Shown here piece by piece: positions 11,628 through 18,052 of a DNA stretch of 33,052 nt. Made by a program: the position numbers and the translations under genes. The stretch comes from a virus: the IMG/VR virus record IMGVR_UViG_3300035183_000599, positions 1-33,052 of that record, one strand, 5' to 3'. How positions within the stretch are numbered: position 1 is the first letter of the stretch; every line of letters begins with the position of its first letter. The notes under the pieces are model-generated. The model searched no databases, was not told the DNA's origin, and saw only the letters and a program-made list of their open reading frames with translations.

Positions 11628-12134
11628 TCAATCCTCTGGAAAATCGTCTATATCGTCAATATCGTCTGGAAAGTCCTCCTTAACATTCTCCTTCTCTTTC
11701 TCCTTTGCAGATGCTTTTGCTGATGTAGAAGACGCTTTTGTTGTAGAAGATGCTGCCTTCTTCCTCTCAGCTACAAACTGCTTATATTCTGCTGGAGTTG
11801 GAATAGAAATTTTATTAATTAAAGTTCCATTAGGTTTCTTCTCTATTCCCAACTTAGCAATGAACTTCTTTCCTACCAATGCATCTGTTTCGATTTTTGT
11901 CTCAGACTCACTTATTCCAATTGCTACCAATAAATTGTTTAAATTATTCTTACTAGTCCATATAGAAGATGTAATAATATGACACGAAGCACCAGTAAAT
12001 ACGTCTGCAAGTTCCCAAAGTAGATATTCCTTGTTTAAATCCTTTGCCTTCCTAACATCAACTCCAACTACAATTAATTTATAAACACCTGCTGGCAAAA
12101 TTTTTAATTCTGTGTTTTGTTTTTCAATAACCAT
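11628..12134 (-). CDS. DUF669-like single-stranded DNA-binding protein candidate
   Basis: 168 aa; the start follows AAAAGGAGGAGCT. The N-terminal ~115 residues (ILPAGVYKLIVVGVDV..., LLWELADVFTGASCHIIT, LVGKKFIAKLGIEKKPNG) follow the DUF669 pattern of an OB-like beta barrel found in phage replication regions. An Ala/Ser/Lys-rich linker (120-150) then leads to a strongly acidic tail DDIDDIDDFPED, the architecture of SSB proteins whose acidic tip recruits partners. The likely role is protecting single-stranded DNA during phage replication. It is the last gene of the leftward operon. Confidence 0.65.
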   Translation of the reverse strand: MVIEKQNTELKILPAGVYKLIVVGVDVRKAKDLNKEYLLWELADVFTGASCHIITSSIWTSKNNLNNLLVAIGISESETKIETDALVGKKFIAKLGIEKKPNGTLINKISIPTPAEYKQFVAERKKAASSTTKASSTSAKASAKEKEKENVKEDFPDDIDDIDDFPED

Positions 12135-12140
12135 AGCTCC

Positions 12141-12171
12141 TCCTTTTAATTAAATGAATGATTTTGTTTAA
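12141..12171 (-). repeat. Repeated operon joint, copy 1
   Basis: Holds the last codons and stop of the 12146-12607 gene plus the ribosome site of the next gene. TCCTTTTAATT followed by AATGATTTTGTTTAA recurs at 12618-12654, so both upstream proteins end in KQNH plus three residues. Confidence 0.75.
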
Positions 12172-12607
12172 CACTCTGTTCATATGGTTCAACTTCTATG
12201 TAAGTCTTCCCAAGTCTATCAATTTTCTTCTTTAGAATCTTATAAAAATCCATCATTTCCAATTTTTCTATAATTCTAACATTCTCTCTATTCTTCTTAA
12301 ACTTCTCACAAATAACACCATCGTATTTGTTGGCTATTTCTGTCGTGATTTTTTCCAGAAATCTTTGTTTTTCCATCTCAAAATTCTGCTTTTCCAGTAC
12401 GAAAAGCACAACAGCTTTGGCATGCTCTAAAGTACCACGCTTTTCAGTCAATAAAATTTTTTCAAGTTTGAGTATTCTATTAAATGAATTGTATATATTT
12501 TCTGGATTAATTACAAAACTTTTTCCATCTACATCACATAATGCAAGTAAATTGTCTACTCCAGCATATATTCCAACCAAATTCTTATCTTGAATCTCTT
12601 GTACCAT
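12146..12607 (-). CDS. TnpB-derived RuvC-fragment protein, probably nuclease-dead
   Basis: 153 aa, with a GGAAT ribosome site. It aligns along most of its length with the RuvC core of the TnpB encoded nearby (residues ~178-320): VGIYAGVDN against VGIDTGSKT, LEKITTEIANKYDGVICEKF against LHKRTTEIANRYDTVFCENL, and DFYKILKKKIDRLGKTYIEVEPYEQS against YFYQMLKYKLEERGKNYDEIGRFEPS. The RuvC-I aspartate is Tyr, the RuvC-II glutamate is retained (CEK), and the zinc finger, RuvC-III aspartate and the whole N-terminal wedge/recognition region are absent. The reading frame is intact with its own ribosome site inside a phage operon, which suggests a domesticated protein rather than debris. Function unknown; regulator, decoy or TnpB antagonist are possibilities only. 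Confidence 0.75.
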   Translation of the reverse strand: MVQEIQDKNLVGIYAGVDNLLALCDVDGKSFVINPENIYNSFNRILKLEKILLTEKRGTLEHAKAVVLFVLEKQNFEMEKQRFLEKITTEIANKYDGVICEKFKKNRENVRIIEKLEMMDFYKILKKKIDRLGKTYIEVEPYEQSVKQNHSFN

Positions 12608-12617
12608 TTATCAATAT

Positions 12618-12654
12618 TCCTTTTAATTTAACAAATGATTTTGTTTTTGTTTAA
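12618..12654 (-). repeat. Repeated operon joint, copy 2
   Basis: Encodes the KQNHLLN end of the 12623-13129 protein and the ribosome site of the TnpB-fragment gene; near-copy of 12141-12171. Confidence 0.75.
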
Positions 12655-13129
12655 AAAGTTTCGTTTCAATTAAAATTCTTTCCACAGAATACTCATCTTC
12701 AATCTTCCTTGTCCTCTCATCCACTTCTACCAAATTCCTGTAATTTTTAAGCTGATTGGATAGAGTTTCCTTAATTTTTAAGGAAATTTCATCTGAAAAC
12801 ATTAAAAATCTAACTGCCTTAATTATTCCTGTGCTTGAATCTATAATGTAAATAATTGTTGACCCAAAATTTACGTTACTAATGTCTTTTACAAAAGCAT
12901 TGAATGGTGCTGCAAAACCTACGTACTGGAATTTTAGAACTAAAAACGGTATATCGTCTTTCGTGAAAATTCCATATTCGAGCGGCCTATCCCTAAACTG
13001 ACTAACTTCATTATCACTTATGTACGATAGAGCTACTACTGTGTCGAAAGAGTCTTCTTGTTGTACAATAACCGCACCATTATGCATGTATGGTATTGCA
13101 TAATTTATTTTTTCACCTACAGATTTCAT
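12623..13129 (-). CDS. Uncharacterised 168-aa phage protein
   Basis: Start overlaps the stop of the 49-aa gene upstream (ATGA), with GAGGA seven bases before it. A globular alpha/beta segment (about 25-130) has alternating hydrophobic strands: DTVVALSYISD, IPFLVLKFQYVGFAAPFNAF and STIIYIIDSSTGIIKAVRFL. It is followed by a helical charged C-terminus. The general pattern ('...IYIIDSSTGIIKAVR...') resembles an uncharacterised family I have seen in low-GC bacteria and phages but cannot name. No catalytic motif is apparent. The C-terminal KQNHLLN parallels the KQNHSFN of the next protein because the operon joint is repeated. Confidence 0.8.
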   Translation of the reverse strand: MKSVGEKINYAIPYMHNGAVIVQQEDSFDTVVALSYISDNEVSQFRDRPLEYGIFTKDDIPFLVLKFQYVGFAAPFNAFVKDISNVNFGSTIIYIIDSSTGIIKAVRFLMFSDEISLKIKETLSNQLKNYRNLVEVDERTRKIEDEYSVERILIETKLFKQKQNHLLN

Positions 13130-13693: not shown

Positions 13694-13730
13694 ATTCCAA
13701 ATATAATGTTCTCAATTCATTTTTTATAGT
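13694..13730 (-). promoter_or_regulatory. Phage motif P, copy d
   Basis: ACTATAAAAA, 12 bases, CATTATATTT on the minus strand, 16 bases after the stop of the 13747-14208 gene and 74 bases before the 13620 gene. One of four copies with constant inner spacing (others at 15432, 16287, 19045). Best read as a promoter or operator. Confidence 0.6.
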
Positions 13731-13746
13731 GGTCTACGAAAAAATT

Positions 13747-14208
13747 TTATCCAATCTCTCTCAACGCCATTCCACAAGAGGGACACGGAATTTCTCTCCC
13801 ACTTGGCTTGTGTGCATCCTTTCCATACTGACCACAGGTCTCACAATAATTATTAATTTTTTTTAGGGTATATACCACTTGAACCTTTTGATTCATCATT
13901 TTACATTTCGTGATATTTCCAAACACACTTTTGACTGTACCACCGAACCTTATTCTATTTACATTTTTTCCAAAATCCTTTAATATTTCTTCCTTCGAGA
14001 TTAAAGAGTTCTCGTCTACCACATAATTATTTTTTAAGAAGTTTTTCAACTCATAATCAACACAGGTTTTCCTTTTCCCTTGTAAGAATCTTCCAGACTC
14101 ATTCTCTTCAATTTCGTCTTCTTGTTCTGTTGGTTCATATTCATCTTCTTGTTCAAGTTCATCTTCAGGTTCTAATTCTTTATTATTATTTGTCTTACCA
14201 TTCAACAT
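13747..14208 (-). CDS. Zinc-ribbon/winged-helix-like protein, truncated paralogue
   Basis: 153 aa. Residues ~45-150 are paralogous to the C-terminal part of the 15485-16162 protein: DYELKNFLKNNYVVDENSLI, RFGGTVKSVFGN, and a zinc ribbon CETCGQYGKDAHKPSG...CPSCG (CxxC...CxxC). The FLKNNY...FGGTVKSVFG part recalls the winged helix at the end of D5/P4-type primase-helicases. The N-terminus is an acidic Glu-rich stretch. The paralogue has ~80 further residues upstream; here the TnpB-element end (TCAA at 14217-14220) lies 8 bases before the ATG, and no clear ribosome site is present. The gene has therefore probably lost its 5' end, and expression is uncertain. Confidence 0.75.
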   Translation of the reverse strand: MLNGKTNNNKELEPEDELEQEDEYEPTEQEDEIEENESGRFLQGKRKTCVDYELKNFLKNNYVVDENSLISKEEILKDFGKNVNRIRFGGTVKSVFGNITKCKMMNQKVQVVYTLKKINNYCETCGQYGKDAHKPSGREIPCPSCGMALREIG

Positions 14209-14216
14209 ATCTCTCT

Positions 14217-14330
14217 TTGAACGCCATTGTTGACAATGGTTCCTGCTTCATTGCTCCGCCTTACAGCACGGTGGCTCCACAGGCTTTAGACGGTCGTTCC
14301 AACCGCCTTTACATTATGCTTCTGCAATCC
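14217..14330 (-). ncRNA. Right end and probable omega/reRNA of the TnpB element
   Basis: Leftward sequence after and overlapping the tnpB 3' end contains GTGGAGCCAC, GCGGAGCAATGAAGCAGGAA, a perfect hairpin CCATTG-TCAA-CAATGG (14224-14239) and ends GTTCAA. These are characteristic of IS200/IS605 right ends, where cleavage falls just after TCAA and the transcript serves as TnpB guide RNA. The guide would start at 14216 and read AGAGAGATATG, i.e. into the truncated zinc-ribbon gene. Extent is approximate. Confidence 0.7.
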
Positions 14331-15410
14331 GAACCGAAGAATGTTATTCGCTGCGAGAAAATCTCTATCGTGCGTTCTTCCACAACTTTCGCACGTCCAT
14401 TCTCGGTCTGCAAGTGTTAATTTGTTATTGATTACCCCGCATGTGCAGAGTTTAGATGATGGCTCGAAACGTCCTATCTCATCATAGTTCTTGCCACGCT
14501 CTTCGAGCTTGTACTTGAGCATTTGGTAGAAATATCCAAGTCCCAAGTCTCCAATGCTTCTGGCAAGTTTTCGGTTTGCCATCATTCCCTTGATATTTAG
14601 ATTCTCGCAGAAAACTGTATCGTACCGATTGGCTATCTCGGTAGTACGTTTATGCAAGAAGTCTAGTCTTTGGTTTGTTACTTTCTCATGTTGCCGAGCA
14701 AGTCGCATAATCGCTTTAGCTCGGTTTTTACTGCCCTTTACTTTCTTCGATACTCTTCGCTGCAACATTCTCAAGCGTTTGAGCGACCTCACAAGATACT
14801 TTGGGTTTTCAATCCGTGTACCATCGCTCAACGTTGCATATGTCTTGCTGCCTGTATCAATTCCAACCGCTCCATGTTCTTGAATAGGCTTTTTATTGGG
14901 TTGATTTTTTGGTTCATCAACGGTGATACTTATGAAAAACTTTCCTGTCTTTGTCTTGCTGATTACTGCCGTTTTGATTGTTCCATCGAATGTACGACTC
15001 AAGCGTGCTGGTATCCATCCGAGCTTCAGAACCCACACTCGGTTTGCATCAAAATCAATCTTGGTGTTCTGAGGAAACATAATGCTCTGATTATCGTGTT
15101 TGAGTTTGAAGCGAGGAAAACCGTGCTTTTCTCGGAAAAATCTCTTGAACGCTTTATCCATGTTCCTGATGCTCTGTTGCAAGCTCTGAGCTACACTCAA
15201 ATTCAGCCACTCATACTCTGGCTTTTTTTTCATCTTAGCTAGCTCTTTCATCAGCGTAAAAGCAGATATACTGGTCTTGTCCTTCTGGTATGCTTTGATA
15301 CGCCGAGCCAACGCCCAATTATACACCCACCGAGCATTTCCGAACATTTGGTTGATGCTCTGCTCCTGAGTTTTATTGGGATAGATTCTATATTTATAGC
15401 CCTTGAACAT
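14286..15410 (-). CDS. tnpB: TnpB RNA-guided nuclease (OrfB family), apparently intact
   Basis: 374 aa, typical TnpB length. N-terminal MFKGYKYRIYPNKTQEQ and FGNARWVYNWAL are the family's helix-turn-helix/wedge signature. The RuvC triad is present: D185 in GIDTGS, E269 in FCENLNIKGM, D350 in THDRDFLAANN. The zinc finger has C322/C324 (C-x-C variant) and C340/C343. TnpB is known as the guide-RNA-dependent ancestor of Cas12 and helps retain IS200/IS605 elements. No ribosome site is visible, but motif P copy c lies 22 bases upstream and may drive it. The G+C and codon use differ from the phage genes around it. Confidence 0.95.
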   Translation of the reverse strand: MFKGYKYRIYPNKTQEQSINQMFGNARWVYNWALARRIKAYQKDKTSISAFTLMKELAKMKKKPEYEWLNLSVAQSLQQSIRNMDKAFKRFFREKHGFPRFKLKHDNQSIMFPQNTKIDFDANRVWVLKLGWIPARLSRTFDGTIKTAVISKTKTGKFFISITVDEPKNQPNKKPIQEHGAVGIDTGSKTYATLSDGTRIENPKYLVRSLKRLRMLQRRVSKKVKGSKNRAKAIMRLARQHEKVTNQRLDFLHKRTTEIANRYDTVFCENLNIKGMMANRKLARSIGDLGLGYFYQMLKYKLEERGKNYDEIGRFEPSSKLCTCGVINNKLTLADREWTCESCGRTHDRDFLAANNILRFGLQKHNVKAVGTTV

Positions 15411-15431: not shown

Positions 15432-15468
15432 AATATAAATATAATGTCCTCAATTCATTTTTTATAGT
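15432..15468 (-). promoter_or_regulatory. Phage motif P, copy c
   Basis: ACTATAAAAA, 12 bases, CATTATATTTATATT on the minus strand, 16 bases after the stop of the 15485 gene, exactly as copy d is placed after the paralogous gene. Lies 22 bases upstream of the tnpB ATG. Confidence 0.6.
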
Positions 15469-15484
15469 GCTTCATAAAAAAATT

Positions 15485-16162
15485 TTATTCAATCTCCCTC
15501 AACGCATTACCACACGAAGGGCATGGAATCTCTTTCCCTTTTGGCTTGTGTGCATCTTTACTATACTGACCACAGGTCTCACAATAGTCGTTTATTCTTC
15601 TTAACCTTTTCAGTTGGTATAATGCACAATTTTTTTTGTTTAACATCTTATATACAATTATATTACCAAAAACACTCTTAATTGTTCCACCAAACCTTCT
15701 TTTGTTAATATTCTTTCCGAAATCACTTAAAATGTCATCTCTTGATATTGAAGAATTCTTATCCACAGTGTAATTATTTTTTAAAAATTCCCTAAATTCA
15801 TAATCAATACAATTTTTTCTACTTCTATCTTCTTGTGCTGGTGTTGATTCAAATTCAGACTCTTCATATTCATCTTCTTCTTCTTGTGTTAGTTGTTCTT
15901 CATTATGATTACCACGTAGCATTTCACTAAGCACTTCCTGAATCGTACTTCTTAGCAATTCATTGTCTATATTTTCCCTAATTACATCTTTAAGTACATC
16001 TTTAATCATTGGTTGTAAATTATTGTTAATCATAGATTTATCCTCCTTTTGAATTAATATGTTTCTGCCGCATACTGGGCATTGATTAGTTTGGTTTGTT
16101 CTTGGTTGGTCTTGTTCTTCTAAGCAAAATAAACATAGTCGATTGTATTCTGCATTAAACAT
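15485..16162 (-). CDS. Double zinc-ribbon/winged-helix-like protein
   Basis: 225 aa; AAAGGAAATT ribosome site. The N-terminal ribbon is LCLFC...CPVCG (about residues 9-34). A helical stretch follows (MIKDVLKDVIRENIDNELLRSTIQEVLSEML), then an acidic Glu-rich linker, a winged-helix-like segment (DYEFREFLKNNYTVDKNSSI...KRRFGGTIKSVFGN), and a C-terminal ribbon CETCGQYSKDAHKPKG...CPSCG. The RFGGTIKSVFG pattern recalls the DNA-binding tail of D5/P4-like primases. First gene of the leftward operon, so a DNA- or RNA-binding early regulator is plausible. The paralogue at 13747-14208 retains only the second half. Confidence 0.75.
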   Translation of the reverse strand: MFNAEYNRLCLFCLEEQDQPRTNQTNQCPVCGRNILIQKEDKSMINNNLQPMIKDVLKDVIRENIDNELLRSTIQEVLSEMLRGNHNEEQLTQEEEDEYEESEFESTPAQEDRSRKNCIDYEFREFLKNNYTVDKNSSISRDDILSDFGKNINKRRFGGTIKSVFGNIIVYKMLNKKNCALYQLKRLRRINDYCETCGQYSKDAHKPKGKEIPCPSCGNALREIE

Positions 16163-16545: not shown

Positions 16546-16902
16546 ATGAAAAAATATTTTAAAATTCCAACAAAAATTTATGACCACATTTTTTTAGATG
16601 ATGGTTTAAGTAAAAATGAGATTCAGGTATTACTAGTCATAGCAAGACTTACTTTTGGACTTAACAAAGAAAAAACTATGGCTAGTATCAGATACATAGC
16701 CTCATGGATTAAAGACTACAGTGGATATTTTTATGAAAATGAAGATAAAAAGGAAAATAAAAATAAAAATATATGTAGCATAAGTATAGCAATAAATAAA
16801 TTAATCAAAAAAGGCATACTAAACTACGAGTGGACAACCTGTAACGGAAGAAAGACAAGGGTACTGTTTTTTAATAATAATTATCTACAACATTTTCAAT
16901 AA
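16546..16902 (+). CDS. Winged-helix replication/regulatory protein (phage O N-terminal-like)
   Basis: 118 aa, AAAGGGAT ribosome site. It has the phage replication protein O N-terminal fold: KIPTKIYDHIFLDDGLSKNEIQVLLVIARLTFGLNKEK, ASIRYIASWI, then a Lys/Asn-rich insertion, SISIAINKLIKKGILNYEW and TRVLFFNNNYL. The insertion is absent from its paralogue at 17273. It consists of the DNA-binding domain only, with no C-terminal domain. The iteron array starts two bases after its stop codon. Likely binds the iterons, perhaps as a copy-control or autoregulatory version of the larger initiator; this is inference. Confidence 0.8.
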   Translation: MKKYFKIPTKIYDHIFLDDGLSKNEIQVLLVIARLTFGLNKEKTMASIRYIASWIKDYSGYFYENEDKKENKNKNICSISIAINKLIKKGILNYEWTTCNGRKTRVLFFNNNYLQHFQ

Positions 16903-17272: not shown

Positions 17273-18052
17273 ATGAAACCATATTCCAAAATAGATAACA
17301 GTGTATACGATAAAGTTCTTTTAGATACTAATAATTTAAGTAAAAACGAAATTAGAGTAATATTTGCAATTATAAGACTTACTTTTGGATTTAACAGAGA
17401 AAAAACTATAGCTAGTGCTAGATATATTTCAGGATGGATTAATAATAAAAATATTAGTACTGTAAATAGAGCAATAAATAAATTAATAAAAAAGAAGATA
17501 TTAGACTTTGAATATACATACTACAATGGTAAAAAAACAAAAGTATTATTTTTTAATAAAGAGTATTTAAAGTCAATAGGGGGTATGCTTTCGCCGAAGG
17601 AAGAAGATTTTAATATATCTACTAGTTCCGCCCCCGCCGCCGCCGAAGGCGTATGTGCGGACATAAGTGATACTGATACTGATAGCGTTAGCGATACTAA
17701 TAATGGTACTGATAACAGTAGCGATAGTAATGCTGAAAAGTTTGATACACTGTTTCGAGAATTTTTTAATAGAAAGAGAGATGGTAACATAGATTTTGTT
17801 GAGAAAAAAAATAAAAGACTTGAAAGATGGAGGAGATTATTGGGTGTATTTGAATTTGATAAATTAAGTTCTAGATTAAAGTCATTTGAGAATACTAGAA
17901 ACGAATTCTACACAAAGAAAGCCAGTAATAAGTATAGTCCAGCTTTATTTGAACTGTTCTGTAATCAGGGTATTGATACGGAAAAGGACAAGGATAATAA
18001 TAAGGACAAAGAATTATATCGTAATTTTGTAGATTTAGTAATAATAAAATAA
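17273..18052 (+). CDS. Replication initiator, lambda O-like
   Basis: 259 aa, AAAGGAGAAA ribosome site. Residues 1-100 are a winged helix paralogous to the 16546 protein (KIDNSVYDKVLLDTNNLSKNEIRVIFAII-type, ARYISGWI, VNRAINKLIKKKILDFEY, TKVLFFNKEYL). A low-complexity acidic Ser/Asp/Thr/Asn linker (about 120-160) leads to a C-terminal helical domain (EFFNRKRDGNIDF... to the end) likely to contact the helicase loader. Organisation (DNA-binding N-terminus, linker, protein-binding C-terminus, adjacent iterons, loader gene next) matches lambda O. A GC-rich insert (17627-17661) encodes SAPAAAEG at the start of the linker. Confidence 0.8.
   Translation: MKPYSKIDNSVYDKVLLDTNNLSKNEIRVIFAIIRLTFGFNREKTIASARYISGWINNKNISTVNRAINKLIKKKILDFEYTYYNGKKTKVLFFNKEYLKSIGGMLSPKEEDFNISTSSAPAAAEGVCADISDTDTDSVSDTNNGTDNSSDSNAEKFDTLFREFFNRKRDGNIDFVEKKNKRLERWRRLLGVFEFDKLSSRLKSFENTRNEFYTKKASNKYSPALFELFCNQGIDTEKDKDNNKDKELYRNFVDLVIIK
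17627..17661. other. GC-rich island inside the initiator gene
   Basis: About 35 bases of G/C-dominated sequence (TCCGCCCCCGCCGCCGCC..., bounded by TCCGC and GCGGA) in a gene otherwise near 30% G+C. The 9-mer CGCCGAAGG also occurs at 17592-17600 and 17641-17649. Encodes an Ala/Pro stretch in the linker. Confidence 0.6.

What the first reader, a model, noticed from the sequence alone, without database searches (positions are those of the whole stretch)
12146..12607. A domesticated, probably nuclease-dead TnpB RuvC fragment in a phage operon
The 153-aa protein aligns with TnpB residues ~178-320, best at TTEIANKYDGVICEK against TTEIANRYDTVFCEN and at the FYKILKKKIDRLGKTY helix. RuvC-I Asp is Tyr, RuvC-II Glu remains, and RuvC-III, the zinc finger and the whole N-terminal half are missing. 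Yet the frame is clean, it has its own ribosome site and it sits between two phage genes in one operon. Known TnpB-like nuclease-dead repressors (TldRs) keep most of the TnpB length; a RuvC-only mini-protein would be something different, for example a guide-RNA sponge, TnpB inhibitor, or DNA-structure-binding protein.
Basis: partly seen in the sequence, partly recalled or inferred. Interest (0 to 1): 0.85.

Follow-up and report, generated by a model that had tools for sequence, protein, structure and literature searches.

The report
Dead TnpB RuvC-core mini-protein in phage
A bacterial virus carries a small gene that is the captured, enzymatically broken core of an RNA-guided DNA-cutting enzyme (TnpB); it has been re-shaped as a protein in the viral genome for a long time, but no relatives of the short form were found, so its present function is unproven.

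Summary
The 153-aa ORF lies on the MINUS strand (12607 to 12146) and is a real TnpB homologue (resident TnpB, E 9e-18; PHROG transposase profile, 6e-7; Foldseek top hits are TnpB structures). It covers the contiguous RuvC core and stops at the RuvC/zinc-domain border. RuvC-I Asp is Tyr, RuvC-II Glu is kept, RuvC-III, zinc finger and WED/REC are absent, so cleavage and guide binding are very unlikely. It nests in a clade of phage TnpBs (99/98 support) on a branch about ten times longer than theirs. Along that branch it changed like a coding gene (codon positions 43/30/62% changed; hydrophobic core 24/27 kept), and its codon usage matches the phage, unlike the resident TnpB. So it is neither random decay nor a fresh copy of the neighbour. 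No homologue of the short form was found. A 29-nt direct repeat flanks it and supplies its last residues, which suggests a recent 3' end; a recently truncated, TldR-like longer protein stays a serious rival. Best reading: an exapted, nuclease-dead RuvC-fold accessory protein acting by protein contact (its strong positive charge is mostly gone). A guide-RNA sponge is unlikely.

The parts
12146..12607 (-). 153-aa ORF: RuvC core of TnpB (beta1-beta5 and helices), RuvC-I Asp to Tyr, RuvC-II Glu kept, no RuvC-III
12141..12169 (-). copy 2 of 29-nt direct repeat; encodes the last residues (KQNHSFN stop) of the ORF and the ribosome site of the next gene
   Evidence: 0 expected by chance; 90% identity
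12618..12646 (-). copy 1 of the 29-nt direct repeat; encodes the end (KQNHLLN stop) of the upstream gene and the ribosome site of the ORF
12593..12621 (-). possible out-of-frame relic of TnpB N-terminal half (RNIDKWYKRF against RNMDKAFKRF), overlapping the start of the ORF
   Evidence: 24/29 nt; 0 of 2000 shuffles and 0 of 523 control stretches reach it; uncertain
12623..13129 (-). upstream gene A of the operon, 168 aa, phrog_12389 (unknown function)
11628..12134 (-). downstream gene B of the operon, 168 aa, weak DUF669 / phrog_2300
14286..15410 (-). full-length resident TnpB, 374 aa, catalytic motifs GID, CEN, HDRD intact; foreign codon usage (GC3 47%)

Best explanation
An old capture of a phage TnpB. 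The gene lost its first catalytic Asp and everything outside the contiguous RuvC core, and went on evolving as a protein-coding gene in the phage's minus-strand accessory operon. What is left is an RNase H-fold scaffold without nuclease or guide-binding parts and with most of its positive surface charge gone. It most likely works as a non-enzymatic accessory protein that binds another protein, a partner from its own operon being somewhat more likely than a TnpB/Cas12-type nuclease. Shown: homology, loss of catalytic parts, fast but coding-constrained evolution, codon usage adapted to the phage. Inferred: present function, protein binding, the partner.
For: Nested in the clade of window TnpB + L041 + L042 with 99/98 support; end branch 2.37 against 0.17-0.33 for its sisters. 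Where the close TnpBs share a nucleotide, it differs at 43/30/62.5% of codon positions 1/2/3 (chi-square p 0.0045; with L054 added p 0.004). 24 of 27 conserved hydrophobic sites stay hydrophobic; neutral simulation gives 19.0 +/- 2.2, 6 of 400 reach 24. Neutral drift from the resident TnpB sequence to 50% aa identity or less leaves 0 of 300 frames open. GC3 25% and coding log-odds 0.29 per codon match the operon genes, while the resident TnpB has 47% and 0.005. Its ends coincide with the RuvC domain borders: ISDra2 TnpB RuvC is 185-326 before the TNB insert (PMC10097598), and the profile match to that protein is 189-330.
Against: No homologue of the short form was found in viral contigs, genomes or phage records. 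The 29-nt flanking repeat is 90% identical, whereas third codon positions against the resident TnpB are nearly random (32%, 27% expected), so the present 3' end may be much younger than the divergence. The coding signature could then date from before truncation. The fold model depends on the TnpB rows of the alignment: alone the sequence folds at pLDDT 48.
Confidence: 0.5

Rival explanations
1. Recently truncated remnant of a longer nuclease-dead TnpB (TldR-like). The long, constrained divergence happened in a full-length RNA-guided protein; a recent rearrangement between short repeats cut it to 153 aa, which has not yet decayed.
For: The last residues (KQNHSFN stop plus ribosome site) lie in a repeat of the upstream gene's end, 26/29 identical; at about 0.05 neutral changes per site 29% of simulated frames are still open; a possible out-of-frame N-terminal TnpB relic sits upstream. 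TldRs arose several times and occur in phages (PMC13418256).
Against: Both ends fall on RuvC domain borders, which random truncation would seldom give. Loss of basic charge does not fit a protein that long kept guide and DNA binding. The repeat may be conserved for stop and ribosome-site reasons.
Confidence: 0.3
2. Plain TnpB pseudogene whose frame is open by chance.
For: Partial TnpB remnants exist in phages: PHROGs has partial-length transposase families, and 14 of 383 phage records lack a place covering 80% of TnpB.
Against: Codon-position pattern, hydrophobic-core retention, codon usage in frame and the open-frame simulation. Indels against TnpB are all multiples of three.
Confidence: 0.12
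3. Inhibitor or decoy for TnpB or Cas12-type nucleases (for instance to protect the phage or to restrain a TnpB), by mimicking the RuvC lobe.
For: It shares a genome with an apparently intact TnpB from the same clade and keeps the RuvC shape.
Against: No guide-binding lobe; basic surface lost; its codon usage suggests it is older in this phage than the resident TnpB, so it probably did not arise to control that copy; no direct evidence.
Confidence: 0.08

Closest known systems
IS200/IS605 TnpB (ISDra2 type), RuvC domain
   Same: Sequence, predicted fold, order of beta1-beta5 and helices, RuvC-II Glu
   Different: No WED/REC, no TNB zinc finger, no RuvC-III; RuvC-I Asp is Tyr; net charge near +3
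TldR (TnpB-like nuclease-dead repressors)
   Same: Phage-borne TnpB derivative with a dead RuvC, next to non-transposon genes (PMC13418256)
   Different: TldRs keep guide and DNA binding; this protein lacks the whole guide-binding lobe and the TNB domain
Cas12m
   Same: Altered RuvC centre that does not cut double-stranded DNA (PMC10442227 abstract)
   Different: Cas12m is a full-length RNA-guided effector
Stand-alone RuvC Holliday junction resolvase
   Same: RNase H fold of similar size (7xhj, E 8e-3, TM 0.4)
   Different: Sequence and structure are clearly nearer to TnpB; catalytic Asp residues missing

Membership tests
TnpB | RuvC sequence homology | tested here: met
TnpB | complete RuvC triad D-E-D | tested here: not met
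   D to Y, E kept, third D absent
TnpB | WED/REC guide-binding lobe and TNB zinc finger | tested here: not met
   ORF of 153 aa spans only 176-320 of the resident TnpB
TnpB | guide RNA at the 3' end of the gene | not tested
   the 3' part of tnpB is missing; a whole-window Rfam scan found no such RNA, but no specific model was tried
TldR | inactivated RuvC | tested here: met
   RuvC-I Asp replaced, RuvC-III absent; by sequence only
TldR | kept guide-RNA and DNA binding parts | tested here: not met
   N-terminal lobe and TNB absent; charge lost
TldR | stable linkage to a partner gene across genomes | tested here: inconclusive
   no homologous locus found

The most novel reading that the evidence does not exclude
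A RuvC-only, nuclease-dead mini-protein exapted from TnpB and kept by selection in a phage: a class of TnpB domestication without RNA guidance, built on the RNase H scaffold alone.
Probability: 0.4. Interest if true: 0.68.

Novelty: new variant of a known kind. Interest (0 to 1): 0.45.

Why it matters
Known TnpB exaptations (Cas12, TldR) keep RNA guidance. If the short form works, it shows that phages also reuse the bare RuvC scaffold, and it gives a small natural test of what that scaffold can do without cutting or guides.

Tried and rejected
Fresh fragment or duplicate of the resident TnpB: rejected by saturated third positions and different codon usage. Chance similarity: rejected. Search for orthologues through neighbours and structural genes (gene A, terminase, major head protein, zinc-ribbon paralogues): no related phage found. 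Search of 299 Bacillota genomes: only full or near-full TnpB frames of 285-381 aa matched. Single-sequence fold: uninformative. PADLOC hits only reflect the Cas12f/TnpB relationship. Host: not established. The primary TldR paper is not held, so the statement that TldRs keep guide binding rests on PMC13418256.

Full report
Observation. The finding's coordinates hold an open frame of 153 codons on the minus strand, ATG at 12607, stop at 12146; the plus strand is not open there in that frame. It lies in a minus-strand run of genes (16162 to 11628) with gaps of 15 and 11 nt to its neighbours. The neighbours are phage genes of unknown function: phrog_12389 upstream and weak DUF669/phrog_2300 downstream. 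The contig is a 33-kb virus record with portal, major head protein, terminase and replication genes.

Homology. The protein matches TnpB over residues 5-147: phrog_506 at 6e-7, NF038281 at 9.8e-6, PF01385 at 6.7e-5, under the curated cut-off, and the TnpB of the same contig at 35% and 9.4e-18. AlphaFold2 with an alignment of TnpB RuvC segments gave pLDDT 81 and an RNase H-like order of strands and helices; Foldseek's best hits are TnpB 8h1j (1.2e-7) and 8exa. Without the alignment the model is poor (pLDDT 48), so the fold rests on homology. The RuvC domain of ISDra2 TnpB is residues 185-326 and 360-375 with the zinc-bearing TNB domain between, and the catalytic residues are D191, E278 and D361 (PMC10097598). 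A profile of the short protein and its relatives matches 189-330 of that protein. The ORF is thus the contiguous part of the RuvC domain, cut where TNB begins. D191 corresponds to Tyr, E278 to Glu, and D361 is absent.

Descent. In a tree of RuvC segments the protein lies inside a clade of the window's TnpB and two viral TnpBs (L041, L042), support 99/98; the placement within the clade is not settled. L041, L042 and L054 are full-length frames of 387-401 aa. Its branch is 2.37 changes per column; those of its sisters are 0.17-0.33. Of 75 sites identical in the three sisters it keeps 27, whereas L007 and L005 outside the clade keep 56 and 50.

Selection. Against the resident TnpB, identity at codon positions 1, 2, 3 is 54, 64 and 32%, with 27% expected by composition at position 3. 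Restricted to nucleotides shared by the sisters, which largely isolates the protein's own branch, it differs at 43, 30 and 62.5% (p 0.0045), and at 42.5, 27 and 61% with L054 added (p 0.004). Conserved hydrophobic sites stay hydrophobic more often than neutral drift would give (24 of 27; 6 of 400 simulations). Neutral simulation leaves no open frame at 50% identity or less. GC3 (25%) and in-frame codon log-odds (0.29) equal those of the operon genes, while the resident TnpB (47%, 0.005) looks newly arrived. So this is an old resident that changed as a protein.

What weakens the exaptation claim. A 29-nt direct repeat, 26/29 identical and not expected by chance, bounds the ORF: it carries the end of the upstream gene and the ribosome site at one side, and the end of the ORF and the next ribosome site at the other. 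Compared with saturated third positions it is young, unless conserved for its signals. The 3' end of the ORF may therefore be a recent event, and the coding signature older than the truncation. A 29-nt stretch at the start resembles the N-terminal half of the resident tnpB in another frame (24/29), a possible relic, though such a well-kept non-coding relic sits oddly with saturated third positions, so chance is not excluded. No short-form homologue was found in any scan, so purifying selection on the present form cannot be measured.

Mechanism. Cleavage needs the acidic triad, of which one residue is left (established for TnpB). Guide binding needs the absent lobe. The RuvC segment of the related TnpBs has 25-33 K+R against 11-15 D+E; here it is 26 against 23, which speaks against general nucleic-acid binding. 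What remains plausible is a fold used as a protein-binding surface. This step is inference.

Verdict. Observation confirmed; interpretation partly supported; a new variant of TnpB exaptation if the short form is functional, with recent truncation of a longer dead TnpB as the main rival.

Noticed in passing
13699-14208 and 15437-16162: The resident TnpB (14286-15410) is bracketed by two copies of a zinc-ribbon gene (62% aa identity; 83% nt identity over 167 nt at the 3' end and intergenic part). Both TnpB-derived genes of this phage are thus flanked by a duplication of the preceding gene's end.
   Followed up: partly
14286-15410: The resident TnpB has intact catalytic motifs but codon usage foreign to the phage (GC3 47% against about 24-33%), as if newly acquired; by eye no tnpA among the ORFs, not scanned.
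   Followed up: partly
16546-16902: A 118-aa frame that resembles the N-terminal part of the replication-initiator gene at 17273-18052: a possible partial duplicate.
   Followed up: no
L007:9983-11175: The Spirosoma telluris TnpB near to the resident one is split over two frames, a broken copy.
   Followed up: no
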